A DNA stretch of 64,000 bases from contig NC_092581.1 in NCBI RefSeq assembly GCF_037975245.1, positions 13,855,303 through 13,919,302 of the forward strand, given 5' to 3'. Positions within the stretch are counted from its first letter, which is position 1. Each line of letters starts with the position of its first letter. This stretch comes from Apostichopus japonicus. Taxonomy: Eukaryota > Echinodermata > Holothuroidea > Aspidochirotida > Stichopodidae. The notes under the pieces are model-generated. The model worked only from the letters and a program-made list of their open reading frames with translations, was not told the DNA's origin and searched no databases. A program made the translations under genes and the position numbers. Below, in pieces: positions 3,901 to 48,268 of this stretch.

Positions 3901-6900
3901 AACTTTAAAAAATTTATCTCTGGAAAAGCCATCATCGAGAAACAAGCTGTTCAGATGGCTCAATTGTCTATAGGAGTGTTGAAGTTTTTTTCTGTCACAG
4001 CTGTGCAGGTGTTGGAATGTTAACTTGGGATTATCAATCACAAAACCAGAGGAATATTTACACTACCAGGCACAAAATGTCAGTGTTTTATCCAAAAATC
4101 AATTCTGAATAAAGCCAGAGGGAGTAAAAACATCAAGAAGAAGAAATTGTGTGTTTTTTTTCCCTAACTTTCAAAAATATGAAGTATTTCTTTTATTTGC
4201 TGTCAGTTTACAAAAAAATACAGATTTGGAATTTTATAAAGTTGCTTGAATTTTCTGGAGAATTTGTTTCGGGGGGGAATTTTCTGCCTGTCGTAATGTT
4301 AACTAGATTTAATAAACGATTTGAATGATTTGTGTTTTTTTTTTTGACCGTTGGGAACATTTCTAGCTTTCTGTGATCCTATTTGCTGTTAACATCTGTC
4401 CGGTTATCAACGGATCCATCAAGGTGACAAAGCTTTGAAAGTTTTGTGTGTTTTGGCTTCTTTATAGGTTAAAACTTTGCTCACAGGTTCTGTTTTTTAG
4501 CTTCAGTTCAGTCAAATTTATTTCAAATTTTGAAGAAATAGGCGGAAATATAGTAGTTTGAGTGTTGAAATGTCTAAGACTTTTCACCCTTGAGAGCCAA
4601 AAGTGTTAAAAGAAGTTTGCATATTTTACAGTAGCAAGAGAAATGTAGTACTTACAGTGCCAGCAAAGTCCAAGTTAGAAATCCATAAAACAAAATGATT
4701 AATAGTTAGTTAATTCTTACTGGATAACCATCTTAATTCCTCTACATCTATTAAGAAACTTTTAACAGAGAAAAAATGTAGTTTTGTGAAATATGAATGA
4801 TTTCATAGGAACCATGCTAGAAGATATATATTTGTTTGTTAAAATCTCCAACAAAATAAGCAAATGTTGACCAGTTTTTACACCAATTTTTTAAGTAATT
4901 GTGAAATTTGACAAAAGGCCGCTCAGTTCGTCATTGGGTGATCTCGTACTTGTTCACTAGCAATCTTCATCAGTCCGTCCCCTGTTTACAGATATTTAAA
5001 ACAGAAAATTGATTTCTACCCCAGCGTCTATGTTTCGTCTATGTTTCATCTCTCTCCGTTTACCAGCTGTGAGCCCGGAATAAAAAAAGTGCAATGATTC
5101 ATGGTCTGTTTTAATTGTCCTGTTATTGATTTTTGGAGGCAACTGTCCACTGTTTCCCGATTCAGCTTTTGTATGAAAAGAATGTTTGATGTTCTTGTTA
5201 ATTCCATCTAAGACATTTGTTGTTCTGCTCTGTTGACACTGCCATTCAAAAGTCTTGGCTTTGATGTTGGTTTTTAAGCTCAAGATGCTTGGTTAGTTCT
5301 GTTCGCCGGTCTCCCTCCACATAGCTCGGAGGCTTCTAGCGGCTGGTGATCATTGGACGTGTAGGAAGAAAGGAGGCTGGAAGGCTCACCCTCAAATTTG
5401 CTTCCTCATGGGGTACCATCAAACAAGACAAGACAGAATCCAACAGTATTGTAGTCACTGTTAACTCTCTGGCCGGATCTGTATGTGAACAGCCGTCAAT
5501 TTGAAATGTTCTAAACAAAAAAAGAAGTCCCTTTCACAGCTCGTTGCCTCCTTCTGCTACAAATTTTCCGAAAGTTATTTGGACATTTGGTTATTACTCT
5601 TTTTCCTGGGCGATCTGTTTTGTGTTCGGTAATGTTGCCGGGGTGTGTTTAAATAGCGAGAGACGATGATTAATGCATTTGTCAATTTTTGGTGTCAGTA
5701 GTCTCTTTCTCTTTGATGGAATGTTTTAGACGGTGGAACGTAAGAACAGTTCGACTGTTCTCCGAGGGTTACTTCTCTTTCTTTTCCTGGCTAGCATCAT
5801 GGATGTAAGACCCTTTCTGAATCCTCAATCAGCGGGGGAAACAATCAGTCTCGTGACGGAATTCGACAGTGCGAGACAGTAAACAAATCTGTCTTCCTAC
5901 TTCATCCAGAGAGCAGAGAAAAGTTACTCTTCTTCGTGGCAAAGACATCCGCGAAGAAGGGAGAAACATATCAGACGTTCAAAGCAACTCGAAGGATTTA
6001 CAGAGATATTTGGAGAATTATTTATGGAATATTTCTTCTCACAGGACAGTGTGGTTAGAGAAACGCATTTCCAAATTCCCATGGTGGGAAATATTTTGCC
6101 TGTTTTTTAAAGTGGTCTACTTTTGCGGAAAAATATAATTTCTCACTGATCATAAGTTGTTTTATGTCTATAAATTGCATTTTTCTCCCCTTCCAAGGGT
6201 TCAAGTGTGCCTTGTGAACATTACCTGAAAAAATGGTAACTTTAGAGATTGACAGTTTTGAATAATTTATACTCATCTGAGAAAAAGGTTCTTATTATGA
6301 GTGAAAAAAAAGCAATTTTATTCTCTCCTAAATTTTTGCCAATATATGACCTTCTTTGGAACCAAACAAGAAAATGTAAAAAACATCTCAGAAAGTTCTC
6401 TCCTACTCTAGCATTTTGGGTATCGTCGGTAAACCTCTCAGTGTTCTCTCTCTTTCACTCTGGTTCCACATTTATGAATTTTTAGTGGAGACAACTTTTT
6501 GAAAGTCTCCATAACTTGATTTAAGTCCTTTCCCAGGAGGATCTGACATCACCTTCAATTCCCCCCCTGCCCCTGCATACATCAATTTTCCATAAGATTT
6601 TATCATGATTCTCCCATAGTATGGTAATGTGAAGGTTTTCCTTTTCTTGGCTTAGTCTCCTCCTATTGTCGGTGTCTTTCTGTCGTGATTTATTTCGAGA
6701 GACGGACGATCAATCTCGATCTCCGTCCCCGTGAACGGAAAATCAAGGTTTCCACGAGGTTGCCACTTCTGTCGTTGTCGGATTAATGCATTTCAAAACC
6801 GAGTAACAGTAAACTCTGTAAGCCTACGGTTTTAATTCCTGCCAAAAAGACAAAGATACAAGATCATTTTAAAACGTCTGGCTGTGGATATATAATTGTT

Positions 6901-6944: not shown

Positions 6945-7001
6945 ATGACTGACGTAGAATGGGATTTCGAGATTGTCGATTTGGACGAGATTGATAAATG
7001 G
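6945..7001 (+). CDS. candidate alternative first exon 1 (acidic N-terminus)
   Basis: ATG starts a 19-codon reading frame, MTDVEWDFEIVDLDEIDKW, ending in TGG before a strong GTAAGG donor, phase 0. An in-frame stop (TAA, 6918-6920) lies upstream, so the ATG would be a true start. Eight of 19 residues are Asp or Glu. Splicing to 23206 would give a 1011-residue Dp116-like protein. The peptide resembles nothing I recognise. Support is the donor, the phase and the upstream stop; no transcript is available. Confidence 0.5.
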
Positions 7002-8144
7002 GTAAGGGTTTTGATTTCTCTGTAATGTATTATTCTGAAAGTTCATGCCATTTATGTGAGATTATTGCAGATTTTAGGTATTTATAGTAGTTATCCCTGT
7101 CACCTCATTAGACGTATATTTCAGAAAAGTAAGATATTACTGTCGTGAATTGTATAGTATTTATCCCATTATCCACTGCGGTTGTTAGGAGCAGGGTATG
7201 GGACGGGGGTTACTAAGGGAAAAGGGGGGTTCGCATGTGATAATAAGCTTCAATCTCCAATTATCGGGGATGTAAATCAAGTGCTATGAATATTCACTAC
7301 ATGTAAATTCTTGAGCCATGATGTCTTGATCAATGAGTGAGCTACCTATATGTTTACTCATTCATTTAAGAATATGAACTTTTTTTTCAATAATATAAAA
7401 AAACTGTGTGACCCTATGCATCAACTGTTCATGTCAGTGTCCAGTAAACCTGTATGAAGAAATGTGCCTTTTAGTAAATGTAAAGTAAGTTAAAAAATAA
7501 ATGGCAACAAAATTGACAATATTTACCAAGGAAAAAATTGCCAGGCAAAATAATTGAATTTTCTGAAGTAAATGCATCTATTTCTGAGAGATCAGTGGGG
7601 TGAATTAAAGTTTGCTACAAACCCATCATTATCCTGCAAAAAATTCTTGCTGTGTAATTTCTCAACAATTTGAAACAAATTGGAAATTTATCTCGGTATC
7701 CAACCACCCACCAGGCGTACATATAGAATTTTCTTCGAAAAGAGTGGTTTTGATAAAAATCTGTAATGGACTTCCTGCGGAGGGAAGCGTAACTTTCAAG
7801 CTTTTGTATAGGACCAAATTATTATATGCATGCTGCTAGCTGAGTAGAGAGCATGCCAACACATCTTATAACCACAAAAATTACAAAGTGAAGACATTCT
7901 TATGATGTAGACTTATTAGACTTGCTGGCAGGAAGCTAGCTGTAGGTAACTATAAAGTCTGTACAGTCACTCCTTGACCTCCTGGGATGCCTGACATATA
8001 CTGTTAGATATTTGTTGAGTCATAGTCAGGATGGGAGCTTGTTGAAATGGTGTGCGCTTTCAGTACCACTAAAGGGTAAAACAATACTTGTAAGCAGTCC
8101 TGTGACATGGTATATGCCTTTATAGCGACGAGAACATTGTCCTA

Positions 8145-8596
8145 GACTGAGTAGTCCAGTCACTTTAAGTGAAGAGCCTCAGATGTTTAAAGGGTCATTA
8201 CTCGAAAAGAGGTACAGAATAACAACATGGACTGAAATCAGTTCTTCTCGACAGTCAGATCACAAAATTATTTTGTGCCTGAAGTCATCCTTTAAATGAT
8301 TATTCAGTGATAAAGAATGGATGACACTCAACATGAATTTTTCAATGATATATTTGGAATGCAACGTTTCCAAAGTTGAGTTGTGTTTGCATCTGAGGAA
8401 CTGATCTAAAGGTCTGTGTTTTAGACTGAGCAGTCCAGTCACTTTAAGTGAAGAGTCTGGTCACATGTACAGTATGTCCAAAGTGTCATTTCTCAAAATA
8501 TAAAAGTGGTATAGAAATGCAACTTGGACTGACAGCAGTGATATTTTTTTTACAGTCATGTCACAAAATTAATTTTGTGCCTAAAAGTCATCCTTC
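8145..8596 (+). repeat. diverged direct repeat, two ~150-170-bp copies
   Basis: Copies begin GACTGAG(T/C)AGTCCAGTCACT at 8145 and 8424 (period about 279) and both end near CACAAAATTA(A)TTTTGTGCCT. The second copy contains a perfect 18-bp palindrome at 8562-8579. Confidence 0.7.
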
Positions 8597-8711
8597 CTAT
8601 GTTTACTTAAGGCTGATCAGAGGTGTGAATAAGGGAGGGATGCTGTGGGGTGTTTGTGTGTGTCTCTGTGCTGTTTTGTGTTAATGTTATTTTTGGGGGG
8701 GGGGGTGGTTA

Positions 8712-8800
8712 TTTGGGTTTTTACGCCTTGAGCGCTCCGCAGAGTGGATATGTGCGCATTATAAATCCTTAATTATATATTATTAATACTACTATTATTT
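8712..8800 (+). mobile_element. LINE 3'-end fragment
   Basis: TTACGCCTTGAGCGCTCCGC is followed by GGATATGTGCGCATTATAAAT and an AT-rich tail with ATTATT units; this is the same class of retroposon 3' end in plus orientation, with no coding part left. Confidence 0.5.
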
Positions 8801-11800
8801 GTTTGACCTACTTACTGCTTCATGTGACATGTGCTCATCCCTGGTGAAAGAAAAAAGTTGTTACAACCTATTAACCATCTTATTGTCCACTTAGCTTGTT
8901 GAAACTGCTGTTTGACCGTGTAATAAACACACTTTGTCAACACCCATGCAGGAAGGCAGCAGAACGAAGTTCTGTTAGTTTTAGGCCTAGAATTTTCCAC
9001 CGGTGATTAATAAAGCACTATACTGCAACTAAGCAGACGTCAGTAAGCTGCTGAGGGCAAACCATCATAAGAAATTTGTATGCTCCAGATATTGTTATGA
9101 ACAAACTCCCATAAACAACTTAAGAAACTTTTGACCTATCATGTTGAGGGAGGATGGTGGGGGGGGCCCGGGGGGATACTAGGGGTGAGATCAGAGAACT
9201 CAATATGTTTCAAAAAACATATCAACACATTTGCACTTCTCTTGTTCTTATATGTTTTCTCTTTTATTCATTGTGTTAAATACTTCCTTTGAAAGAGATT
9301 ACCTTTGTTAAAACTGTTGTTGATAAAGTTTTTTCACATCTCCTAATACTAACATGGTGATCATGTTCACCATAAAAATATGAAATGAGGAACATTGGGT
9401 AAAACTGAGAGTATTCACTTGGAGTGTGAAATTGTTACACCTTGGCAGAATGGCACAATAAGATATATTGAAACCTGCTCAGCTTTTCCCTCTAATAGTT
9501 GAGGCCTTTGAGGGGATGGAATAAATCATTGTATCTCCCAATCACAGTAAAATTCTTCCTCTCCATCAGCATTGTTATAACACAATGTAGACAGCTTCTT
9601 AGAAACTGCTATATATCATCGATATAGGCTACTCCTAGACTGTATGCTATAAGTACAGTATGTTAGGATATACAGTATATGCATGGTTACTAGGGGATGC
9701 AGATCCAGAGCTCTACCAATGAGATAATAATTCCTGTTAGTGTTGTGTGTTGGTAAAAGTGACTGCAGATTCATTGCTGCCAAGAACTGGAGCAAGATAT
9801 TTGTTACCAGTCTATGCCAGACTTGGAGATGCCTCTCAAAGCTGACAGTTTTATCACCCTTCTTGCCCCTTCTAGTTGACTTGAGTTTCTTCATCTCCTT
9901 GCGGTTTGCAATCCTTGACATGTTCACTTCACACATGAAGAGGAGAGCAGCTCAAAACCAGTACTGGAGATTCATTATGAGATGTTTTCTTGCATTTAAG
10001 CACTATTTACTCTTTGTATATGATAGTCACAGTTTTTTCGTTCTCCCGAAAAAATGAGGCCCTGTGTGCCCCAAAGGGGCACCTTTTTTATTCCGAGATA
10101 GATTTATTATTTTATATACATCTTAGAGCAGAAAGAATGAAAGATGGCTTGATACATTTCCTCCTCTGCGGCGTTATCATATGTCTTCACTTCCTATTTG
10201 GTGTGATCTGGTCCCTGGTGTGTATATTCCTCAGATATCTTAAGAAACTAGATACAGCAGGAAAACAAGCTCTTACATTACTTCTGATCTTCAAAGAATT
10301 TCTGTCAGTAATAGACTAGCTAGAATAGACTAGAAACGTCTGCTCTCAGTTTATGGGAGTCTCAAATGTCTGAATGAGTACAGGGAAGGGAAGAATACTA
10401 TGGTAAAAGCTCTATAGTAATAGCCAATATACAGATGTGCTATTTCTTGGACTATGACATCGCAAACATTTTAGAAAAAGGGACATCAATATTGGCCAAA
10501 ATGTTTGACATTCAATAAATTGCAGGCAGTCTGCCTTCTAAAGTATTCTCCTGAAGGTCCTATAACCCACCGAACAAATTAGTTTCACTGACATCTAGGA
10601 ATGTTCAGTGTGCTCATGAAATATTGACTGCCAAAAGGTCAGCCATCTTGTTCTTATCAAAACATAAAAGTTGTCATTGTCCTTTGTTTTCGTATAATCT
10701 GATGTTGTGGGACTCTGGGTATATAAGTTCTTGTTTTCCAAAACGTATCCTATCATTGAAAGTAATCTGTTGCCTATTCAGTCAACCTATTGGCCTGATT
10801 TTATTTACTATGTTTTTTTTTCCTCCATATATTGATAACTCTAGAATCAGATGAACAATAAACTTCATACTTTCATATTAGATGCTTCAAATTATATAAA
10901 CACCATGTAGAATGTCTGCTGAAATGACATAGTAAAGATACCTTGATGGTGGCAGTAAAATCTTCTTTTTACAGTTACTGTAGGGCAGGATAGGCATTGC
11001 CAAAATGACCGTTGACATTCTAGCATGCTTGCTAGCTTAGCTATTACTGATGTCCTTGAATAACCCAAAAATTCATTTGCCATGTATCAGTACTGAATAC
11101 ATTATTTTCTGACATCTTGGGTGCATGTGACCTGAAAAGTCTCGATTGGTCCTTTTAAAGTAGAGTAATATGCAGTGGATGGTGAAATTCTCAAGATTAT
11201 CATTTTACCATCTCGTTGCCATGAATGCCATAGCTCTATCAGCAATGTGAGGACAAAAGTTTTCTTCCAGCTATATTTACAAAATTGAGAATGTTCTTTT
11301 AAGCTGGTATGTTCACCCTCTGTCCATCTTTTCTTTTGTTTTGTGCGATGTTTCCTCATTAAATTTTCAAATTGATTGTAATTCGGACCTATTCAGTGAC
11401 AGGCTACAGGATGCCAAAATTTGTAACCAATTTTCGGATTCATTTTCTGGCAGGCTGTTACGTCAATGCAAATTAATAAGACCCAGGGCCTTGTCCCTCA
11501 CAGCGAACTGGAATATTCTCTTACAAAAAGATGCATTCTAATAGACTCCTTTTGTTTTTATAGTAGCCTTTTATAGCTTGAAAAATTGTGATTCCTTTTA
11601 AATTTGAAGTTTCTGGAATGCCTTGCAAGCAGACAGCGATCACTCTCTCAGGGAAAAGGAAAATTTGGGATATAAATGGAGCCAGCAGATTGGCAGATGT
11701 GGGCTTTCTCCGTCAGGTTTCGTGGACTGTAGGCAATGACATTCTTAGCACATACCCAAGCAGTTGTGAGTTGTTGAGGAAAGAATTGCTGTCGATATAG

Positions 11801-14651
11801 TTTTAATTTATGATATCATTCTCCAGTGGAAAACATTAATAAGTAAGCTCAACATCCTGTGTATTTGTGTGTACGTTTTGTTTTTCTGTTCTGAGATACT
11901 TTGCTAGAGAAAAAGAATGAAGTCACCAACCGTGATAAAGCGAGACGAAGCAAGGACAAAGTGAGGACAACAAAGCGAGTCCAAGAAAGCAACTTACATT
12001 TGGTGTATTCGAGACGGACAAAATTTGTCTGTTACAATTAGCAACCGTAAGCATTTGCTGTGTTACCATAGTAATGAGGCGGACATCTTTTTGACTGTTG
12101 GAATACAATCTACTAAATAGGAGAAATATTGTGGTGGGAGCGTCCAGTTCTAGATGAACGTTCCCTCAGTGAGGCCATGTCATTGGAATGAACTAAGTTT
12201 ATCCAAAGAGGGTATTGGGAAGACTAACAAGCTATAATCAGCTAGTAATCTGCTAAAATAGTCACAGGATAGTGTGGATTCATGTTGTGGTTTGGCAGCA
12301 GATGTTACTTCTCATCATATCCCATTTTGTTAGCCTTTTCGCTCTTGAATATCAGTAAATTTACATACAAGTATAATATACTGTATACAAGTATAATATA
12401 GCTTATCCAAGGATATATACTAGTTGTCATGGAATACTGCCCTCTATGGTGAGATTAAACTATATTGGAAATATCCAAGCTTTATTTTAAGAGGGCAGAC
12501 AATGCCTAGTACTAATAATATTCCTCCTAGTATATAGTATCAGCCTATAATAAAAATTTCTTTTATTAATCTTCAAGTTTTGTGGGAGTTGCCATGGAAA
12601 CTTACGTTAAACCACAACTCTTTAACAGATTTTGTTAATATTCTGCATGAGGGATCTCTTTGTTAGAAACTGAGAAAGAGTCACCAAAAGTCCACATGTA
12701 CCTCTGAGAGTATTAAACTCTCTGTTTTTTGTGGCATTGTTTCCTGAATAGGTGGTGCCAGACATCTGAAAATATTGGGCATAAAGTAATACTTTTATGA
12801 TGCCATTCATTTCTTGGTAAAGTTTTCAAAGTGTCAAAATCTTTCATTGATCAAATTATATTGGAGTTGTGAAAAAGAAAGAGAAAACTCTTAGAAGACA
12901 TCAGGAAATGATTTATACTTTTGATATTAAAGTCCAGAGACTTTCAGAGAAAAATGACATCACCTCCTTGTTTATACAATGCCCAGACACTTAATAAGCT
13001 GTGAAACATCAACAAACAGGGGGAGGTTTTCTGACATTTGGTTTCTATTTTGCTCCATTTGCAGTTGATAAGGATTGCCATTAAAAAGTACCCCCCATTT
13101 ACCTCTCTCATAACTTCTTAGATATGGTTTTTTTGTTCCCCTATGAACCCTTTAACCCATTAGAAGGTAAAAGTCAAGACAAAGGAAGTTGATTATTACC
13201 CCAAGGGAACGTTGTTAGTATCAGTCAGTCTTGATGAAAGGAAGGATATAAAGCAGACTAGACAAATGTATTCCAGTTAGGTGGTATTCTAAGAAGATAG
13301 ATCTATGGGTCCCACCTGCTCCGGGTACAGCGGTCTCATGTACATATGTAACCATCTCCATGTATTTCTAACGGTCCTATTAATGTGAACAAAATACCTT
13401 CGACATGACTAGAACGATTTAATGTCTTCATTGAAAGAGGATCAAGGGAAAGAAAGCAGTTGATATTTATGGTCTGTCTTGTAAAAAGGATAACCTGAAT
13501 ACAGAACCCATCGCTGATAAAGGTAGCTGGTAAAAATTCCGTTCAGTGTCAGCTTGGATAAGGATGGCACGACATTACTCTCTCGTTAAAGATTTGAAGA
13601 GGCAGATTCAAACGTGTTTAGCCAATAAATACCTTTTGGCGTACCAAACGAAACTCTCAGGTCCTAGTCGTAGGAGCGCCATTACTTCGCAATTATCGCT
13701 GAAGGACGGCTACTAATCAACGACTTCCAGGTGATTAATATAGGTAGGGTAATTGAGTTAGACTCAGCGTAGTCGATGCCACAGGGAAGAGGGGGGAAAA
13801 ACATTCTGTTTGGCGGAAGATATACAAACCAAAGTCAGGCAAAGCCCTTCGAGTCTGTTTCGCACAGTACATCGGAATACAGACAGATTTATTTCATTCT
13901 CAGGAAAACCCACTTGGAGAGGAAGTTAGCTTAAGCGCTTCATCCCACGGAAACCTCCGAAAGCTCTAGTCAATTGTAACCGACATCCTACCTTTGTCAT
14001 TTTGCAAACATCCTGTTAAACTGGCGCGGACGCCGACAGTTAAGGAAAAAGCAAAAGTTGTCGGAACAACCAGCAGGGGAACTTACTCGATTTTCATCTG
14101 GGTGATACAGATACGAGAACTCACTCTGGGACTAAAACCTTATTGTTGTTGTTTTTGATTGGGTGGAGTGATTCCTGTATGTGTGTGTTGTGAATGGGAC
14201 AAAACTGTGATCTAGCAGTTACCGGTTTAAATCACACACGTTTGTAGCTTGTTTCGATGTATTTTCTTCCTCATCACAGGGAGTTTTTGTTGAGAGATTG
14301 TTTTTAGCAGTATTTATCATCTTCTATCAAACGTGCTGTACTTTTGGAAATAACTACTTCACATGGTATCAGTTGCAGTGACTGTTTTCATTGGTTCGGC
14401 TTACAAGTATATACCTCATAGAGTAGTACGCAGGTCTCTATTGCTGCTACGAATGAACATACCGTACTAGTCAGGTGAATCGGAACTTGACTTTGGGAAT
14501 TTAGATTTTGACTGGTAACCAGGACGACAACTTCTGATTCACTTAAAATTGTGGAAGAAAAGAGGAGTATTTAGTTAACTCTGAGATAAATCATAGTCTG
14601 TTTAATGATACAGCAGAAGTGAGGGGGGTCGGTTTTAATTAAAGCAGTAGG

Positions 14652-14729
14652 ATGCCTCAACAATTGTTCAACGGTGCTTCTATGACAGATCCAGGAAAAC
14701 CCAAAAGTGGTAAACATGTCAGATTCAAG
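14652..14729 (+). CDS. candidate alternative first exon 2 (basic N-terminus)
   Basis: ATG opens 26 codons beginning MPQQLFNGASMTDPGKP and ending KHVRFK before a GTGAGC donor, phase 0. An in-frame TAA at 14640-14642 precedes the ATG. A second in-frame ATG stands at codon 11. The C-terminal half is lysine/arginine-rich, unlike the acidic candidate at 6945. Joining to 23206 gives 1018 residues. No homology is recognised. Confidence 0.55.
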
Positions 14730-16040
14730 GTGAGCTAAATATTCTTGTACATGTATTGTCAGGCTTTAATGCTAGCCATTCTTGCCACAGTCCTTTACTC
14801 ATTAAGAAATCAAAGTCAGAATTGTTCTCTCACCCCACCCCTCCCCTCCCCCCACCCTTTCCCTTCTTGTCTGCATTCTTAGACTTTAATCTCCATTTCT
14901 AGACTGTTATTAAAACTTTTTATGTCCAGAATTGAAGAAACCTTTGGACGTTCTCAATATACTGAGGGGATGAAACTAAAAGTAACAGTGGTCTTTTTTG
15001 GCCCCTTCCCATCCTCCCACTTCCCTGCCCCATCTTATCCCCCCCCCCCCCCTCTGCTCATCTTAAGATTAGACCTTTTACGATAACGTTTGAAAACTTT
15101 TTATGGTCATGCTGGAAATCGCTTTTGAGTATCGTTGATGGATATAATAGATGACCTTTCTTTAATTTCCCACACATACAGCATTAAACCAGGGTCTTAT
15201 ATTACACCAGGTTTTGGGTACTGTTTACTTTTGCCTTGTTATCCCTCCATTGTAACCCTATTGAAGACCACTCTAGCCCTTCATTTCACCACTCCACATT
15301 CACAATATTGAGAATTTGATGAGCTATTGACTTGAATCGGTGGAGGTGTCAACAAATTGATTGGATTGTACAATGCTTAAAGGTGACTCAAGCAACACCA
15401 TAGTGTAATATATCACCATGCTTGACTATATTTGTAAATAAATACTAAACTTGGTGCAGGACCACCAGTGCACCCTTCAACCTCCAGACCACAATTGAGA
15501 TATCTAGCAGATACAATATAGTATTATACAACAGTACACTGGTTTCAAGCTACAGTACAGTGAATAGGAGGAGTTCCGTTACTTGGTTTTCTAGTTTATT
15601 GTCTTCTAGTTTTATTTTTGGACCCTTTTTTGGCAACTTTTATCGCTGTTATTCAAACAAGAGTTTTACCTGGATATTGTTTGCTCTGTTTGGTTAATCA
15701 CCCCTGCTGGAATTGCAATCCAGGGAGGAGTGTCAAATAGTGCATCTGAAATATTGGATACTATTAGCAATAACATATTTAGGCTCTGTTACACTCTGGG
15801 ATACTATTTCATCATTATTAATGTGCTTCATTGTGTTCTCCTGTTGATGTGTTTGACAGTTTAATTGCAGCCTACTTTACCATGAAAGCAATAAATGTTA
15901 AACTGTCCATATCGTTATCTTGTGGAACCGTGGGGAACGAAACTTAATAATAATAACATTCTACCAGGGGAAACAACTAAACCAGCTCTGCTGGATCGTA
16001 CCCCCTTAAACTTCGTTGGCCCAAGCAAAGAGAAACGTTA

Positions 16041-16048
16041 ATTTGCAT
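16041..16048 (+). promoter_or_regulatory. octamer motif ATTTGCAT upstream of candidate first exon 3
   Basis: A perfect ATTTGCAT, the binding site of POU/Oct-family factors, stands 25 bases upstream of the ATG at 16073. It fits a promoter-proximal element, or a 5'-UTR match by chance. No clear TATA box was seen nearby. Confidence 0.35.
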
Positions 16049-16072
16049 ATTCATAATGAGCGGTTGCTCACC

Positions 16073-16210
16073 ATGGCTTGTTGTCTACCGTTCTGTTTAA
16101 ATGGTGATTGTCCCTTGGAATGGGAATCAGACGAGGAAACGGGTTTGGGTAAGGTTTATCTGTCCAGAGGAGGTCCTCTTCCGAGTAGCGGGTTTCTGAC
16201 CTGGTTCAAG
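16073..16210 (+). CDS. candidate alternative first exon 3 (cysteine-rich N-terminus)
   Basis: The ATG lies in a near-ideal start context (CACCATGG). The 46-codon frame begins MACCLPFCLNGDC, has an acidic middle (ESDEE) and ends GFLTWFK before a consensus GTACGT donor, phase 0. Four cysteines in the first 13 residues are a pattern typical of S-palmitoylated membrane anchors, which is inference. Joined to 23206 it gives 1038 residues. The frame stays open upstream and beyond the donor, to a stop near 16355, so an unspliced small protein is an alternative reading. An octamer motif lies 25 bases upstream of the ATG. Confidence 0.58.
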
Positions 16211-16635
16211 GTACGTGCAACTCCATACAAAGTAACACTCTGGTCACTTGGTCAGGGCTACTCCCTCGAATTCAGGTCTAGAGGAAGATTTGACAATTTG
16301 CCAGTAGATAGAAAACTTTTAGATAAGGCGCTTGCATTTACTGCCAGTAGATATTAAGAACAATTGTACTTTTCTAGTCAATAAATAGACATGATTTCTG
16401 TTCCTAATAATAAGCCTAGTCAGTATTACAGTTCATTATCACTGTTGTTATTAGTTTGCTCTTATAAGCTTGCACAGTATTGAACTTGGTTATTGCCAGT
16501 ACTTAGATTTTTTTTAAGTTACTTGGAATGTTTTTAGCAAGTGGCTTCTAGGCCTGGAATCAAGTGTCAAACAGTGTAAGATGTGGTGCACTGGAAAAGA
16601 AATAGGGAAAGAAAACACATTTTGGTTGTTGTTTA

Positions 16636-16779
16636 TATCACTGTCAGAAACGAACATTAAGTAGGCCAAGTTTATCATTCGTAATTTTGCTCAAGATTTA
16701 GATCAGGTATCACTGTCAGAAACGAACATTAAGTAGGCCAAGTTTATCATTCGTAATTTTGCTCAAGATTTAGATCAGG
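16636..16779 (+). repeat. perfect 72-bp tandem duplication
   Basis: The segment starting TATCACTGTCAGAAACGAAC occurs at 16636-16707 and again, apparently without change, at 16708-16779. It must be recent, or an assembly artefact. Confidence 0.9.
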
Positions 16780-18635
16780 TGAGTGATATTTAAGTCTGAA
16801 TACTATTGCAAGGTTGGGGGGGGGGGGTAGCTGGACTGCTGGTTTTGTCGGGAAGGAAGGGCAGTTGGCTTAGCTTGGTAATAAAATGCATTCCTTGGGG
16901 GGGGGGGGGGCTGCAACATTTCACATTTTGAGGCCAAACTCATTTTGCATTGTCAGAATTACCAGATTTTTAATAAATCAAAAGAGGTTACTTGTTGCAT
17001 ACCAATCTTCTCAAAACTGAAAATAAATTGACTTTTAAATGAACAAAATCATTCTTGTTACTTATACAACGTATATGTGTAACTGTATTCATCTGGACCA
17101 AGTCATACATATTCAACCATTTTATTAGGTCCTTCATTGTGACTGAAAGATCTTGAAGATCCTTACAAAGCCCTTCCATATTGGTTCAAAGCTCATACCC
17201 ATATTTAAAATCGCTCAGAATTTGGCCCCAAACTGTAAAATTGTGATCAAGTCACTGCTACTCTGTTTAATAGTGTAATGTTTTTGTTGTTTCTATTATT
17301 GGCATGACAAGTTGCATCATGCCTTTTGCCAGCTTGAAGAAGTAAAATTTAAAAAAAACACATTTCTATCTTGGTGAGGTACATGATTGTTCCTTTATTG
17401 ATTTAGTATGATACCACCAACTTGTGACAGATTAAATTGTAAAGGTTGCTTTTCTTGACAAAACATCAGAAAGTTAATTCAAGGTCAGGTTGGTTGGGTT
17501 AAGCCCGACAGCTAATTCCCAGAAAATTTTATTTTTGAAACTGTTTGTAATCAGAAAGGTCTTTTCTGATCTTGAAAACTTCAGGATAAATAATTGCAAG
17601 TGTCACAGTTTTGGTGAAATGTTTGGACAGACTGTAATATCCAACTGTGGACTGAGAGTGTCTTTATTTTGCTAGCTGTGAAGTAGTTGTATCTTCCTGT
17701 AAGGCTACTTCCAGGTTGTAATTATCTTTGATCTACCTACCAGAGAAATACTTCTGTAAATTCAGAGAGAGAGAGTTCTAAAAGATCACCCAAAGGAATT
17801 GTGGTCAGAATCACATTTGTGTTAAAGCAGCTTTTTTGAATTCGGACGGCAATTCGTCCAAACCCTCGCCTGGTATATTACTCAAAATAAGATTAAAAAT
17901 TGATCACACTTAGGCACTCATCTAGATTTTCCCACCAAATGAAGGTTCGTTAGTAGTAGGTGATTATAGATCTTGATTCAGTCCTCGACATTTTGGTCGT
18001 CCGGAAGATTTTTCATATTAGTATAGCCAACACAGTTAAAAGAAACTACATGGCAAAATTTCCAAAAATTAGATTTCCACTGCAAATTTTCAAGTGAAAC
18101 TTGGCTAGTCAAGCTTATGAGCTCTTTGATGTGAGGTTTTAGTGTTCTACATTTAAAAGGATGTGATCAAAATGACCTCAAGTAGCTGCTTTTTAAAGTT
18201 AGTGTACATATACTTACTATGCATACATAACATTATTTGTCAATTATTAAAATGAATTCCAGGGTAAATTTAGGTCCACTGGTACATGACAAAACCATTT
18301 TTTATTTCTAATGGGTCATGCCCTCTCTTCCAAGCAATTTCAAATTTTCTCATGATAAAAAGGTTTGTAATTTGTGGTAAAAATAGCAGATGGAGTCAAT
18401 TTCGATTAGGGTAGTATTTCTCATCAATTGTTCTAGTTCATAGATTTTACAGTTGAAGTTTATGGGAAGGTTAATATATCTGCTTCAGAACAGACTAAAA
18501 TATTAAATTTTGTTTTACTTTTGGACAATGTAAATGAAATGTTGGATTATGGATGTGAGTGTTATGTAGGTGCTATATACTCTTGTTGTTAGTAATGGAA
18601 ACTGCTGGTTTTGTCTATTAGATGAAGGAGGGTAT

Positions 18636-18666
18636 TGAGCTAATGGTCGATACGACCATTAGCTCA
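18636..18666. repeat. perfect 14-bp inverted repeat with 3-nt loop
   Basis: TGAGCTAATGGTCG, loop ATA, then CGACCATTAGCTCA: a perfect hairpin of 31 nt in the intron between candidate first exons 3 and 4. Confidence 0.85.
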
Positions 18667-19438
18667 GTACAGCTGTTAGGATCTATCAACGACCAGTTCA
18701 GTGATCGGTCTGATAGTGGTAAAACATGTACATGGTGTGACCAATATTATGTTGCAATTATTTATTTTGGTTTTCTGAACACCTCTAGTCTATGAATGCG
18801 AAATTTTATAAACTTTAAGCGGTCAAATGCAAAATGTATTAAATTTTACTGGTCATGTGACCTGTAGTACGCAAGCCTATGAATATGCAACAGATATCCT
18901 TAACCTAGTATATATTTTTATTCATTTGATACCTCGACGTTTTGAATGCCTGGCATACCGAAGGAAATTGAAATAAAAATATAACAGAGGCTTTTCTTGT
19001 CCGATCACAAGGCGATCTATGACGGATGGTAGATCACTGTGCGTGGAACAGTTTAATGGAGAGTGCTGTCCGTCCTCTCAGTAGGACTAACTAGACAGGA
19101 ATTTTAAAAGCCTTCACCCGTTCTACCATAGCAGCTTAACTGGGAATTCTTGATATAAATCCAACAAAAGATTGGTAGGGAAATTCTGTTAACGATGTAA
19201 TACTTCTCGTATGTGTCGAACCGGAGGCAGAATAATTTTGGTGTGGACTTATTAATGGTTAATATGCGTCGATATTGGTTTGGCAGTTTATAACAGTGGT
19301 CGGTCGACTGAATAAAAACTGTGCCTACTCTGGCAGAACGAAGGAGGAATTTTGTTTACCCTGCAGTAAATTTATAGCCTGAAAGTTGTTCCTTTTTAAT
19401 TTGACAAGATTTTGGAAATTGTATTTCTTCCTTTAACA

Positions 19439-19525
19439 ATGAAAACTGGAAAGTGTGGAATTGGTGGTTTTCTCATTTTGGAAGTAACCTTTATCCTTCA
19501 AGATGTTTTGAAGAGATTTGAAAAG
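19439..19525 (+). CDS. candidate alternative first exon 4 (hydrophobic N-terminus)
   Basis: ATG opens 29 codons starting MKTGKCGIGGFLILEVTFIL and ending LKRFEK before a GTACGG donor, phase 0; an in-frame TAA at 19397-19399 precedes it. The segment GFLILEVTFIL is hydrophobic and could be an amphipathic helix or a weak signal-like segment. Joined to 23206 it gives 1021 residues. This is the candidate nearest the common exon (3.7 kb). Confidence 0.5.
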
Positions 19526-22500
19526 GTACGGTTTCATAGGACTAGCTGATATGCTGGACGTAGTATACGATGGAATTGTACTTGAAATGTAAACATCCAT
19601 ATTATTTCTGAAAGCAACATTGATATTTCAAAAGGAATTGTAAAAGTCGTAACAATAACATATATCAGTTCGTTAGTTTTGATGAGTTATAGGTTCGACT
19701 TGGAATTTGGTATTTGTTGGTGATTTATAGAGTAAAACACTGATATGGAATAGACTTTGGCCACATAAGTTAAGCATCACATAAAATCCTTTATTGAAAC
19801 TTTTAGAGCAAATTTTCAGAATTGTTGCACAGACTTGTCTTTAATTTATGCCAATAAAAGAATTGACTAGCTTGCAAGCTAGTGAAGTTTGTCTTGATCA
19901 TTGAATATTTAATAGCAAAATCTGTACAAAGAGCAAAAACTGCCTGAGGGGTCCATGTGTATTCGTTATTATTGTTATTATTATTGGTGTAAAGTGTGTA
20001 CTTGATTAAGTTACTCTCTAAAATTACCAATCATAAATGTAATAAACATACTTTTTGTACAGGCTTGAGTTTGTGTTGAATTTATGGGCCCAATCATCAT
20101 CAAATCTTACTGTAAAGATTAGATGAAATACCTAAGTCAATTTTGCTGGTAATAAAGATGGCAAGTAAATGTAATATACAAATTACTCATATACATTTTT
20201 ATGTTCTGTGCAGAAGCAGTCTTTGTGTGTGTGTATGTGTGCTAGTGATAACTGCTGGTTATTTTGAATGTGCTCCTTCGTAAGTGGACAAGAAAGTTGT
20301 CTACAAATGATACCAGTGTGATGTTTCTTTGACCTTTGCAAAAACGATTCTCAAAGGGAAGAGAGCTTTTGGAAATATACTGTAGCTAGACAGGAGCAAG
20401 ATTCATATATGTTTATTCCCACATTACACAATGATGTGGCAGTATTTGCCAACATTTACAGTGTAAGATATCTCAGCATAAAAACCATTTAACAGCAATG
20501 GGTCCCTTTCAGTAATTTTAGTTTAAATGTGTTTTTAAGGAAGAAATAATCTCACTTGTTCCTAACATGAACTTATAATTTGTCCTAACAGTAATACACA
20601 ATTGCTGGAAACAGGTTTCCAAGCAGCTTATTTACCTAAATGACCACATATTGTAGTTACCTGCATAGAACTACAAAACAGTAATGTTAACATTTATAAC
20701 ATAATCACACTCTTGCTCTTAAATGTATCATATTTTACATGACCACTTTAATGGAGGTTATGTTTATTTGTAGTGTGTAACCCTTAGGAACATTTAACCC
20801 CTCCCTAAAGGGTTATCAATTTCTTGTGAAAAAAAGAAATTAAGTACCTCGTTCTCATAATAGGATTAAGAGGGAAGATTTCGGCATTAGTTTATGTTTC
20901 AAGAGAAGCATAACCAAGACTTCAAGCAGAAAGCACACTCAATCTTCTTATCTACAATTTTCATGGTCTCCTTTCCTTTGTTGCTATGCCGATCTTCGAG
21001 TGGAGGAAGTAATATTCATGTGCTAATGCATCTCGTCTTAAATGGGCAATTTAAACCATCCAATCATTCGTTACAATATTAACCATAAAGTTTGGAAATT
21101 TGTCAGACAAAAAAAAAAACGCCCGATTCAACGTTCCAGTTGTTCTCACGCTTCAAGACAGATACGACCCACATACTGTACGTACCCACACAAGACAGAA
21201 TGAATATATATATTTATTTTAATGTTCCTTCGGCGGAAAAAGCAGTCATCTAACGAAGATATGAATATTTCCCCCGAGGAGAGTAGAATGTACTTTCAGC
21301 AGTCAGGGAGGTTTATTAAGTCATGCGAGTCTCATTTAAAATTGACTGTTATGGATCACCAGTAGTTTAACCAATAAAGAACCGCATTATGTTTGATCCA
21401 CCCCCCCCTCCTCCCCCCAATGGTACCATTAAATATTCAAATGAATAACAACATCGGTTTATCTTTTCGGATGTGTGGGCTATGCCATAAGCCAGATGGT
21501 ATGAAAGTCAGTTGGCAATGTCATAGAATGGTATCATCTTTTCTATTGTATGTTGCCTTTGTCTTATTTTAAATTTGGGAGGGGGGGAGATTATTTTTGG
21601 GATGGGGGGGATTGATTGGGGGAGATAACTTGAATGCTCTCTGTATTTATTATTTTGCAACTAATGACAGGCAAAACAACATTTGTTCTTCCATGTACGA
21701 AAGATGATTCATAAGTTTTTTTCTTGCTGGTCTTTTTGAACTGGCGATTTAAATCCCAAGGTTTAATGATTAACATTTGTAGCCTCTCTTAGTGCCTGTG
21801 ACCATGTCTCGGGCTGTAATTAAATAAAAATGAAAAGTAATCTCTCTGACAGCCCCCGTTTTGTCTTGACGACTAAACTCTGTTCCACCGATACACAGCT
21901 GTTTACGGGGAGAACAGATTGCAAATCTCAGGACATAATTAAGTCTTTAATTAAAGTAAGAGCATAAAAAAAAAGCATGAAACCTAAAAGTACTATTAAA
22001 ACTCCTCCTCGGGTCACGTTTGGGAGGGTAATTTATGATCGTTTAACGAGTAAATGTGCTACCGGTCCAGCAGACACGCAGACGTGATGTTGTAGTACTA
22101 GGGAAGCGCTTATTCTAGTCAGATGTGTATTTCAACAAGGTGTGTTCAGTCATACTGTTTACATGTGTGTGTGTACATGTACAGTATAGGGAAGAGGAAA
22201 GCAGCAAGGTTATATCGTACTCACAAGTAAAGGTAAAACGAACATTCAAAATTGTTGTCGTTAATTTAAAACGTTCTTCAGTTTATATAGTTTCAATTAA
22301 TTTGTATTTAGTTGGGAAAGGTTTTTTTTTTTTTAGTTGAAATGACTAGCAGGAAGGGGTGTTGTATTTATTTACTCTTTTTTTTTTAATACAAGTTGAT
22401 TGTTTAATGTGTTCCATTGATGGTGTGGATAAGTGCAACATAACTGTGTCAAACTTGTTAAGTTTGGAATTTAATTTTTTTTACCATGCTGAAAGTTTGA

Positions 22501-23205
22501 CGCGTTTTCATGGATGTATTTTGGATGAAAATTCCCAACCACTCTGTTACTCCGTTACCGATTCTGAGTGAGTGAGTGGATCTCTGTACCAGCGTGTTGT
22601 GTATTTGAATCAGACAAACAAATCTCTCTTTCATCGAGATCAGATTTCTATATTTGTATCAGTATCTTGTTGAAGCCCGTAAGCCACAGCATATGATGGT
22701 ATACCCTCATGCATTTTAATTACCTTATTGCCGTAAATAAACCTAGTACATTCAATGGTGCAGTGTTACCAAAGGTGAGAGCTAAAATTATCTACACAGT
22801 CTGTGCATGTTTTGGCTATTAAGAGAAACTGGGACTTTTTTTTCAACTTGCTTCCTTTGCAACGTGAAATGAGCATACATGTACGTTTACAATAGCTAGT
22901 ATTGTAAAACTTAAAATTGCATTGTCTTAAACATTGGCATTACATTACATTCTTTCTTCCGTGGTTTTTGTTTCTGTCTGTTAAACGCTCTGCTTAAGAT
23001 CTGCCCACGAGTCATTTATTCTTTCATAATAAGTGTTTCTTTTCCTTCAACATTCGGTACTCTCCTATTTCATATTTGCTTCTTTGCCTTATCTTTGAAT
23101 TTAATGAAGTTTGATTTTGTTTTCAGAAACTAGAAGCAACGTTTATTGGACTGTAATTTTCAGCAAAACTCTTACCATGTTCGTTTTTATTTTCCTCCTT
23201 TGCAG
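19526..23205. other. intron before the common exon
   Basis: No exon supported. An ATG at 22123 leads to a possible donor at 22140 but in the wrong phase for 23206. C/G runs occur near 21400 and 21590. Confidence 0.5.
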
Positions 23206-23378
23206 GATCTTCAAGCTGAGATAGAAGCACACCAGAGCATCTTCACTGCGTTGAACGAGGCGGGTTCCAAGGCGCCATCCAACGAGGAGCAAGAGAATGA
23301 CGCAGAGACCTTACAAGTCCAGTTAGAGACCATGAATGAAAGATGGAGCAAACTTCAGGGACAGTCAGCAGAGATAAG
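23206..23378 (+). CDS. DMD: dystrophin exon (human exon 56 equivalent)
   Basis: Acceptor TTTGCAG, donor GTTAGT. It enters in phase 0 with [13 protein letters not shown] and encodes spectrin-repeat helix ending SAEIR. Its 173 nt equals the human exon 56 size as I recall it. Confidence 0.93.
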
Positions 23379-26300
23379 GTTAGTCATCTTCTGTTCACTT
23401 ATCTGGAGAAAAAACAATTATTTTAAAAGTTTTTCAAATCTTCAACAATGAATGGTTTGTATCATTGTAGATTAACAACAAACATTCTACAGTATATGTT
23501 ACTTGCTGGGCTGTTGCCAGGTGCCTCCATTAAATATAATCAGACTTGCACATTTATGTCAGCTGTATCGTCATGATGTCAAATTCTCCTTCCCCTCGAC
23601 ACCTTCCCCTCCCCCCTCAGTAAATGTTCATTCTGTAACTTCTATGGTTCCTACATCTGTCATCTTGCAGTTAATGTTGTGTAGGCACAGTGATTCAGTG
23701 ATTCAGTGTTTAACTGCATTCTGTCAGATTCGGTACAGGAACACTACACATGATTCCCCCACCAAATATCTCTTTCTTTCCTTCAGAGCCCCCGACACCT
23801 GTGGGGGGGGGCAGGTGGAGCATGACCCCCACCCCACTAATAACTTTCACAGCAATGATTTTCATGCTAGCATGTTGATGCCATAGGCAGCAGTTTTAAC
23901 ACAACTGAACATTAGGGGTAGGAGTAAGGTAGGGGAGTAGTCAGACCAATGTGATACCTGTGCCGATCCCGGCAATCCCCCATACCGTTGCAAACCCCTG
24001 TATCGAATGCATCACCTCGTCTTAATATCGCTAACCCTGTCGATTGATTGATTGATTACTTGATTGATCATTATACATCTTACCTAACCTCGCACCTCCT
24101 CTCTGGTCCAATAGGAAAAGGTTGGAGGCCAATGCAGAGGAGTGGGCCGCTCTGGTGGCATCCATTGAGGAACTGCTGACATGGATTGAAGAGAGAGATT
24201 TGGAACTTAGCACTAAGCATCCAGTCGGTGAAGATCACATCAAGGTCAAGATGCAGTTGGATGACCATAAGGTAAGGCAGAGGCATCAAGAAGCTGGTCA
24301 GTCCATTAATTATGGAACCAGCATACACTATTCTCTATCCCATATTTTCCCAAGGCCCCTGACAGACCCCAGGCCATGGGGGGGGGCTGTTGTGCCTCAC
24401 AATAAAACATAATTTGCTACTTCTCAATCGGAATGGTTGAAGCAACCATTCTGGGTCTTAGAAAGAAGGGATGGGTGGTGAGAGGGGGTGGGATGGTGAG
24501 AGGGGATGCGGTGGTGAGAGGATGTGGAGTGATGAGGGGGTGGGATGGGAGAAGGGGAAGAACATGTCCATTTCTGTAAGCCAAATGGTACCGTACAGTA
24601 TACATCATTATCTAAGACACCATCTTTCAGAATTAGACATTTTGGTCACCCTCTCTAACCTCTCTCAAAACAATTCATATTTCGTAATTCACTCAAAGAG
24701 TGGGTTGAAATTTCTTATTACATTTTCCAGTTGTCAAACGAAAGGCTGTGTTTTATCCCCAGTGTAAGTGACTTCCCACATCTGTTAACCTGCTATGAGT
24801 TATATGCTGATATCTTGATGTGTGTGTTTCCTAGTTAGGCTTAACCAACACTTTTAATTAGATATGGCCTTGACACAGTATACTGCAGAGAGCTTATCAG
24901 ACCATCAACAACTGTTGCTATCAATCACGTAAATGACCTTAGGAGATGGTAATCAGGAAAAGGTCATTTGATATTTGGAGATACACCTCCAGTTTCTCAC
25001 AAATATTCTTCACTGTTCGGTGTTGACCATTTCAGTGCATCAAAGTTATCTCTCCCACCCCTTCCTTCTGGAGTTGCATTTATGGTTCATATTCCAGAAG
25101 ATACTCAAGATTGTTTTGTGAACGTATCAAGGAGCCATCTTGTCTCCACTTACTGCTTCGACACCACTAGTCAAATTCACAAGCAAGGAGCCATATTGTC
25201 TCCACTTACTGCTCTGATACGCCTAGTTAGATTTACAGACAGCATTTTGCAGAATTTGTTGGCAAGATTTGGTGACACGAGTATCGCTTAAAATAATTGT
25301 ATTTGGTGAAACTAAGATCCTCTCCAAGATGTGTTCACCAAGTGAACATTAATTAATGAGTAATTAATAATCCTATTCCATCCTAAACATTTCTCCCCCA
25401 ACCACTTTCATTTATCAGTATTAAGAAACGGCAAGAGGTGAATCAGCAATTTTGAACAAATAATTTTTTTGCATTTGCGAACTGTTTTTGAAAGTTATTT
25501 AATCAAGATGATTAAATAAATGCATTGCCATGGCAGTTAAGTAAACATAATACCAAACTCAAAACAAAGAATCAGCTTCAAATTAAAGAAAGGGTGTCGC
25601 CTGAACTTTCATTGGTACAATCATGTAAGCAAATTTTCTATATCATGAACAGATTCATGAAAAGAAAATGAAAAAAAACTGGCAAAAATAGCCTTGAATT
25701 TCATGAAAGTAGTGTACTTTTCAGAAAGGGTAATAAGCAAGATTTTGCTTGGAAAATTCAATGAGAATTAAGTTATGCTCTAGACAGTAGAGGAGACAGG
25801 TGCTAGATTATTTGTCCTTAGGGATACAATGTCAGATGAGGGTGGCAATAAAGCATTGAAATGTGACTGGTACCTGAGAAGGAAAATATAATTTGACAAG
25901 AATATCCTCAAGATGATAAAGAGAAAGTTGTTTGTATATTTAATTCAGATAAGGAAAAATAGGTATTCAAGTTGAGAGTTATTACAATTGTTCATCAAGT
26001 TTTGTATTTCTAAGAAACCCATGGTTAAACTTCAATACCTCTCTTCCTCACTTGTAATTCCCCGATATGTTTCATTAAAATTGACCAAGGGTTCGGCTTT
26101 TTCCGTACGTTATTCTGTTTTATTTTGTAGCATGAAGATATGATATTGAAAAAGAGTTCATATAGTCTAGGAAAATGTATGATTTGTGGTGAGTTGTTTA
26201 ATAGAAAGAGAAAAGGGAGCACATTATTTCATAATGTTTCTAATTTTCTGACATTTGCTAGAAATTTAAAGACGATCTCAATCAGAAGAAACCATTGGTG

Positions 26301-48196: not shown

Positions 48197-48268
48197 GGGC
48201 CTATCCGGGAATCGAACCCGGGACCTCTCGCACCCAAAGCGAGAATCATGCCACTAGACCAACAGGCC
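48197..48268 (-). tRNA. tRNA-Pro (anticodon UGG)
   Basis: The minus strand gives a 72-nt cloverleaf. The acceptor stem GGCCTGT pairs with ATAGGCC (one G-U). Box A is TGGTCTAGTGGC, the anticodon loop is TTTGGGT with anticodon TGG, and the variable and T-arm reads GAGAGGTCCCGGGTTCGATTC with an intact box B. The discriminator base is C. There is no intron, and a T4 terminator follows. All features suggest a functional RNA polymerase III gene. Confidence 0.96.

What the first reader, a model, noticed from the sequence alone, without database searches (positions are those of the whole stretch)
6945..19525. Cluster of four candidate alternative first exons in the intron where vertebrates keep the Dp116 promoter
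Seen: four short ATG-led frames (6945-7001, 14652-14729, 16073-16210, 19439-19525) each end at a good GT donor in phase 0. The next common exon (23206) needs phase 0. Three have an in-frame upstream stop close by. The chance of all four agreeing in phase is about 1 in 81 if phases were random, though I did search for them. Known: vertebrate DMD makes Dp116 from one promoter in intron 55, just before exon 56, and 23206 is the exon 56 equivalent. Inference: this gene may use an array of promoters giving proteins that share 992 residues and differ only in an acidic, basic, cysteine-rich or hydrophobic N-terminus, which could set location by tissue.
Basis: partly seen in the sequence, partly recalled or inferred. 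Interest (0 to 1): 0.85.

Follow-up and report, generated by a model that had tools for sequence, protein, structure and literature searches.

The report
Candidate internal promoters in sea-cucumber dystrophin
The one giant intron of a dystrophin gene, probably a sea cucumber's, holds four short start-codon exons that fit the next exon more often than chance would give, so the gene may make several short dystrophins with different front ends, though no RNA evidence was available.

Summary
All four frames, donors and phases are as stated. 23206-23378 is the exon 56 homologue. The exon 55 homologue lies 11.1 kb upstream of the window, so intron 55 is 34,345 bp against a median exon gap of 1,138 bp. 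In vertebrates, sea urchin and Drosophila this intron holds a promoter (PMC1790709, passages). The "1 in 81" argument is unsound because phase was searched for. An exhaustive count (19-60 codons) still gives 6 phase-0 frames against 1 and 1 in the other phases and 1.3-2.3 expected; with 10-80 codons the minus strand has as many. 6945 is strongest: most CpG-rich 300 bp of the intron, TATA box, no near upstream ATG. 19439 is second. 14652 and 16073 rest mainly on the count. A fifth frame, 22709-22774, looks like chance. No RNA or related species could be consulted. A Dp116-class internal promoter is probable, an array plausible, tissue targeting speculative.

The parts
6945..7001 (+). c1: best candidate first exon, MTDVEWDFEIVDLDEIDKW, donor GTAAGG, phase 0
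   Evidence: In the most CpG-rich 300 bp of intron 55 (17-18 CpG, o/e 1.47-1.51); per-codon score reached by 0.6% of 2,633 null frames, but its total of 7.6 bits is not above noise; 0 ATG in 150 nt upstream; one place in the genome
6551..7000 (.). CpG-rich candidate promoter of c1, with TATATAA at 6889, 56 nt before the ATG
14652..14729 (+). c2: candidate first exon, MPQQLFNGASMTDPGKPKSGKHVRFK, donor GTGAGC (7.16 bits), phase 0
   Evidence: A at -3, one out-of-frame upstream ATG in 150 nt; no TATA, no CpG excess; one place in the genome
16073..16210 (+). c3: candidate first exon, 46 codons beginning MACCLPFC, start context ACCATGG, donor GTACGT, phase 0
   Evidence: one out-of-frame upstream ATG 17 nt before; CpG not significant (p 0.11 and 0.30); one full-length place in the genome, plus two short partial matches in its 3' flank
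19439..19525 (+). c4: candidate first exon, MKTGKCGIGGFLILEVTFILQDVLKRFEK, donor GTACGG, phase 0; TTTATA 68 nt before the ATG
   Evidence: A at -3, 0 ATG in 150 nt upstream; two weak phase-0 acceptor-like AGs in its frame; one place in the genome
   Evidence: C at -3, two ATGs within 50 nt upstream, 69% of null frames have a codon score as high
23206..23378 (+). common exon, homologue of human exon 56, 173 bp (the human length is recalled)
5601..6000 (.). single-copy CpG-rich stretch in intron 55, possible regulatory element
   Evidence: a 93-aa ORF that begins in it (5857-6135) has no Pfam match
13401..14150 (.). single-copy CpG-rich stretch ending 0.5 kb before c2, possible regulatory element
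   Evidence: two ORFs have no Pfam match; donor-like site after 13743 without an ATG-led frame

Best explanation
Intron 55 of this dystrophin gene holds internal promoters of the Dp116/SuDp98 class. Each would start RNA polymerase II inside the intron, copy a short first exon (ATG, 19-46 codons, GT donor in phase 0) and splice it to exon 56, giving proteins that lack the actin-binding domain and most of the rod but keep the last spectrin repeats and the WW, EF-hand and ZZ region, each with its own N-terminal tail. 6945 is the likeliest such exon; at least one more of 14652, 16073 and 19439 is probably real. Shown: frames, donors, phase match, exon 55/56 context, size of the intron, single copy of the sites, the statistical excess, the CpG peak and TATA-like box at 6945. 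Inferred: transcription, splicing, translation and any difference in function.
For: Orthologous intron, 30 times the median exon gap; published statements that promoter-bearing dystrophin introns tend to be large and that SuDp98 and Dp205 arise in this intron (PMC1790709 passages). Phase-0 excess 6/1/1 against 2.1 expected. Only the four pass the start-context filter in phase 0, with 0.08 expected at that setting; 53 of 54 settings give P below 0.05. 2 upstream ATGs in 4 x 150 nt against about 12 expected. 6945: CpG >=17 in 300 bp in 0 of 69 control frames; TATA-like box plus A at -3 in 3 of 69 control frames, and in c1 and c4.
Against: No RNA, no relatives. Context criteria were chosen after seeing the frames, and one of the settings takes c1's own length as its lower limit. 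With 10-80 codons and no context filter the minus strand has as many phase-0 frames as the plus strand. c2-c4 have null-like codon scores (17-31% of null frames score as high) and no significant CpG signal. c1's total coding score does not exceed noise: 25 minus-strand and 17 plus-strand segments of the intron reach 7 bits, and c2-c4 are not among them. No peptide resembles exon S1. c2 and c3 each have an out-of-frame ATG in the 150 nt upstream.
Confidence: 0.6

Rival explanations
1. Only one real promoter, at 6945; the other frames are chance.
For: Only 6945 has the CpG peak and a high per-codon score; about two phase-0 frames per 34 kb are expected by chance; the intron-55 coding isoforms described in the passages seen each have one promoter.
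Against: The other three also have A at -3 and few upstream ATGs; at donor >=5.0 bits, which excludes 6945, three phase-0 frames remain against 0.06-0.46 expected at the 100- and 150-nt settings, two against 0.06-0.23 at the 200-nt settings.
Confidence: 0.21
2. All four frames are chance; the true internal start is a non-coding first exon elsewhere in the intron, with translation starting at an internal Met of a common exon, as reported for sea urchin SuDp98.
For: SuDp98 uses an internal initiation site; CpG-rich single-copy stretches at 5601-6000 and 13401-14150 hold no frame of this kind; exon 56 has an internal Met in LETMNERW.
Against: Excess and start context of the four.
Confidence: 0.16
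3. Some frames are internal cassette exons of the full-length transcript, or parts of another transcript in the intron.
For: c4 has two weak phase-0 acceptor-like AGs; human intron 55 makes sense and antisense non-coding RNAs (PMC3448672 passages).
Against: c1, c2 and c3 have no phase-0 AG with at least 60% pyrimidine before it between the in-frame stop and the donor.
Confidence: 0.03

Closest known systems
Vertebrate Dp116 (exon S1 in DMD intron 55)
   Same: First exon in the intron before exon 56, short ATG-led peptide joined to exon 56 (PMC5664101 passages).
   Different: One exon, 755 bp before exon 56 in human; here four candidates 3.7-16.2 kb before it; no peptide similarity.
Sea urchin SuDp98
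   Same: Echinoderm transcript arising in the orthologous intron (PMC1790709 passages).
   Different: Uses an internal translation start; here the candidate exons carry their own ATG.
G-utrophin
   Same: First exon in intron 55 of the paralogue.
   Different: Described as a conserved, strongly helical peptide; its letters were not available for comparison.
Drosophila Dp205
   Same: Arises in the orthologous intron.
   Different: Rather larger product; no array is mentioned in the passages seen.

Membership tests
Dystrophin gene | Spectrin repeat, EF-hand_2, EF-hand_3 and ZZ in dystrophin order | tested here: met
   Pfam EF-hand_2 3.4e-17, EF-hand_3 7.7e-14, ZZ 4e-13; Spectrin 6.2e-6 but under its curated cut-off (27.1 against 29.9 bits); best PDB match of the 35108-35311 exon is dystrophin, 7.3e-32; 15 tblastn stretches in order
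Dp116-class internal isoform | first exon in the intron between exons 55 and 56 | tested here: met
   exon 55 homologue ends at window coordinate -11140 before GTAAGG, exon 56 starts at 23206; this places the frames, it does not show they are exons
Dp116-class internal isoform | ATG-led frame with donor in the phase of exon 56 | tested here: met
   four frames
Dp116-class internal isoform | own promoter and transcription start | tested here: inconclusive
   CpG peak and TATA-like box at 6945, TATA-like box at 19371, neither at 14652 and 16073; no RNA
Dp116-class internal isoform | spliced transcript with exon 56 | not testable with these tools
   no RNA data
Dp116 proper | exon S1 peptide similarity | tested here: not met
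   shuffle p 0.14-0.83 for c1-c4
Dp116 proper | first exon about 0.8 kb before exon 56 | tested here: not met
   3,680-16,204 bp for the four (coordinates); 431 bp for c5, which has the poorest start context and codon score of the five in the window though the second-best donor

The most novel reading that the evidence does not exclude
One dystrophin intron carries an array of at least four promoters, each adding a different docking tail to the same short dystrophin: an acidic tail (c1), a basic tail ending KHVRFK, which resembles a protein-phosphatase-1 docking motif (c2), an N-terminal Cys-Cys tail suited to palmitoylation (c3) and a hydrophobic, helix-like tail (c4). The motif readings are recalled resemblances and were not tested.
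Probability: 0.25. Interest if true: 0.7.

Novelty: new variant of a known kind. Interest (0 to 1): 0.5.

Why it matters
The role of Dp116's unique N-terminus is described as unclear (PMC5664101 passage). Several alternative tails on one short dystrophin would make the purpose of such tails testable outside vertebrates, and would show that the old intron-55 promoter can multiply. Whether this genome has other dystrophin genes was not settled: exon 56 DNA matches one place, but a diverged paralogue would be missed by that search.

Tried and rejected
Transposon origin: each of the four regions (601-801 bp) has one full-length place in the genome; only the query around 16073 also has two short partial matches, in its 3' flank. 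Peptide homology to vertebrate exon S1: none. Homology among candidates: of the pairs compared, two were printed at p below 0.1, with 3- and 4-residue matches. Coding-potential scan for other exons in intron 55: no plus-strand segment exceeds the best minus-strand ones. Nested genes: 6 of the 185 ORFs listed were given to Pfam, none matched at E 0.1; Rfam at gathering score finds only a tRNA at 48197-48268. Exon 56 DNA occurs once, so no near-identical spliced retrocopy could show a joined first exon.

Literature: searches listed no paper whose title or abstract start is about an internal-promoter array in echinoderm dystrophin; one search listed 15 of 27 papers and 10 of 52, so those two were seen in part. 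'dystrophin + sea cucumber + alternative promoter' gave no paper. Seen: passages of PMC1790709 (12 of 25 places, plus outline and abstract), PMC5664101 (12 of 14), PMC3448672 (5 of 5), PMC10293626 (9 of 9) and PMC10344927 (7 of 7). The sea urchin and Drosophila originals were not read. No supplementary file was read.

Full report
What the window is. It lies at C21:13855303-13919302 of a 671.58-Mb, 35-contig genome. Size and contig number fit the Apostichopus japonicus assembly (671.6 Mb, 34 scaffolds; PMC10344927 passages), and contigs of 46.04, 29.64 and 18.20 Mb fit its stated range of 18.21-46.02 Mb and scaffold N50 of 29.65 Mb. That identification is an inference. A recalled human dystrophin probe matches 15 stretches in order from 23206 to 41273. 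Pfam finds EF-hand_2, EF-hand_3 and ZZ above their cut-offs, and Spectrin below its cut-off; the best solved-structure match of the exon at 35108 is dystrophin. 23206-23378 is 173 bp and begins DLQAEIEAH. The exon 55 homologue ends at window coordinate -11140 with EWQGQHQ before GTAAGG, phase 0.

The intron. Intron 55 is 34,345 bp; the 24 gaps between located exons have a median of 1,138 bp and the next largest is 6,688 (gaps are upper bounds because some exons may be unlocated). PMC1790709 (passages) reports that Dp116, G-utrophin, sea urchin SuDp98 and Drosophila Dp205 all arise in this intron, and cites the observation that intragenic dystrophin promoters go with large introns. A promoter here is therefore expected before any frame is examined.

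The four frames. The phase argument of 1 in 81 is not valid for frames searched by phase. I enumerated every ATG-led frame of 19-60 codons ending at a donor of at least 4.3 bits: 6, 1 and 1 in phases 0, 1, 2 on the + strand, and 1, 1, 0 on the - strand. The phase-1 frame shares its ATG with 16073. Twenty-four random 10-kb pieces on both strands give 2.1 per phase per intron length, and resampling reaches 6 with P 0.033. The first 14 of these pieces gave 2.3 in phase 0, and a third-order Markov model 1.3, with 0 of 150 simulations reaching 6. The gene content of the random pieces is unknown. Against this, with limits of 10-80 codons the minus strand has as many phase-0 frames as the plus strand (8 and 8 at 4.3 bits; 11 and 9 at 3.5 bits), while at 15-80 codons it has fewer (3 against 8; 6 against 9). 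So a modest excess exists, it depends on the length limit, and about two chance frames are expected.

Start-codon context. In 69 control frames (14 random pieces on both strands, the minus strand of the intron, and the 3' flank on both strands), A at -3 occurs in 25, a TATA-like box 25-125 nt upstream without a later ATG in 10, both in 3, at least 12 CpG in the surrounding 300 bp in 8 and at least 17 in 0. Requiring A at -3 and at most one such ATG leaves exactly these four in phase 0 (plus the phase-1 frame that shares 16073's ATG); 4 of 88 control frames pass in the 24 random pieces, and all controls together (random 480 kb counted on both strands, other 78 kb) predict 0.08 per phase. Over 54 settings of donor, length, base at -3 and upstream length, phase 0 holds 2-5 frames against 0.06-1.54 expected, P 2e-6 to 0.07, 53 of 54 below 0.05; phases 1 and 2 hold 0 or 1. 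These criteria are standard ones, but I chose them after seeing the frames, so the smallest P values overstate the case.

Frame by frame. 6945 sits in the most CpG-rich 300 bp of the intron in a gene body otherwise poor in CpG (mean o/e 0.44 against 0.76 in the 3' flank), with TATATAA 56 nt before the ATG. CpG clusters in this gene also fall on known exons (for example -21899..-21550, 31951-32350 and 33201-33500; compare), so the cluster could mark an exon as well as a promoter. Its per-codon score is reached by 0.6% of null frames, but that score favours the amino acids of spectrin repeats, and in a segment scan it does not exceed noise. 19439 has a TATA-like box and no ATG in the 150 nt upstream, but CpG that is not significant (p 0.13-0.17). 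16073 has the context ACCATGG but an out-of-frame ATG 17 nt upstream. 14652 has the best donor of the four, A at -3 and one upstream ATG, and nothing else. 22709-22774, nearest to exon 56, has a good donor but a poor start context and null-like codons.

What it works like, and membership. It would work like Dp116 or SuDp98: an internal promoter and a short first exon joined to exon 56. Position, frame and phase were tested and met; transcription and splicing could not be tested; similarity to the exon S1 peptide and closeness to exon 56 were tested and not met (PMC5664101 passages). I therefore file it as a candidate new variant of the intron-55 promoter class, not as Dp116 itself.

Verdict. 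My estimates: at least two of the four real 0.60; 6945 alone 0.21; none 0.16; cassette or other transcript 0.03. All four, with separate roles, about 0.25 (part of the first figure).

Noticed in passing
window 5601-6000 and 13401-14150: Two further single-copy CpG-rich stretches in the CpG-poor intron, without a candidate frame: possible enhancers or non-coding first exons.
   Followed up: partly
window 21001-21400 and 22001-22400: Two more 400-bp bins of intron 55 with CpG o/e just above 1, not among the clusters by CpG count.
   Followed up: no
window 16636-16780: A 72-bp unit in two perfect copies; the strongest donor-like site of the intron (8.68 bits, after 16778) lies near its end without an ATG-led frame.
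   Followed up: no
window 26514-27219: Tandem array of related short units in a downstream dystrophin intron.
   Followed up: no
window 33398-33762: 118-bp tandem repeat (3.1 copies) that starts at the end of a dystrophin exon.
   Followed up: no
window 48197-48268: tRNA gene on the minus strand, the only Rfam match in the window at gathering score.
   Followed up: no
window 27604-27744 and 28600-28710: Coding-like segments between known exons, probably further common dystrophin exons (20.2 and 9.1 bits).
   Followed up: partly
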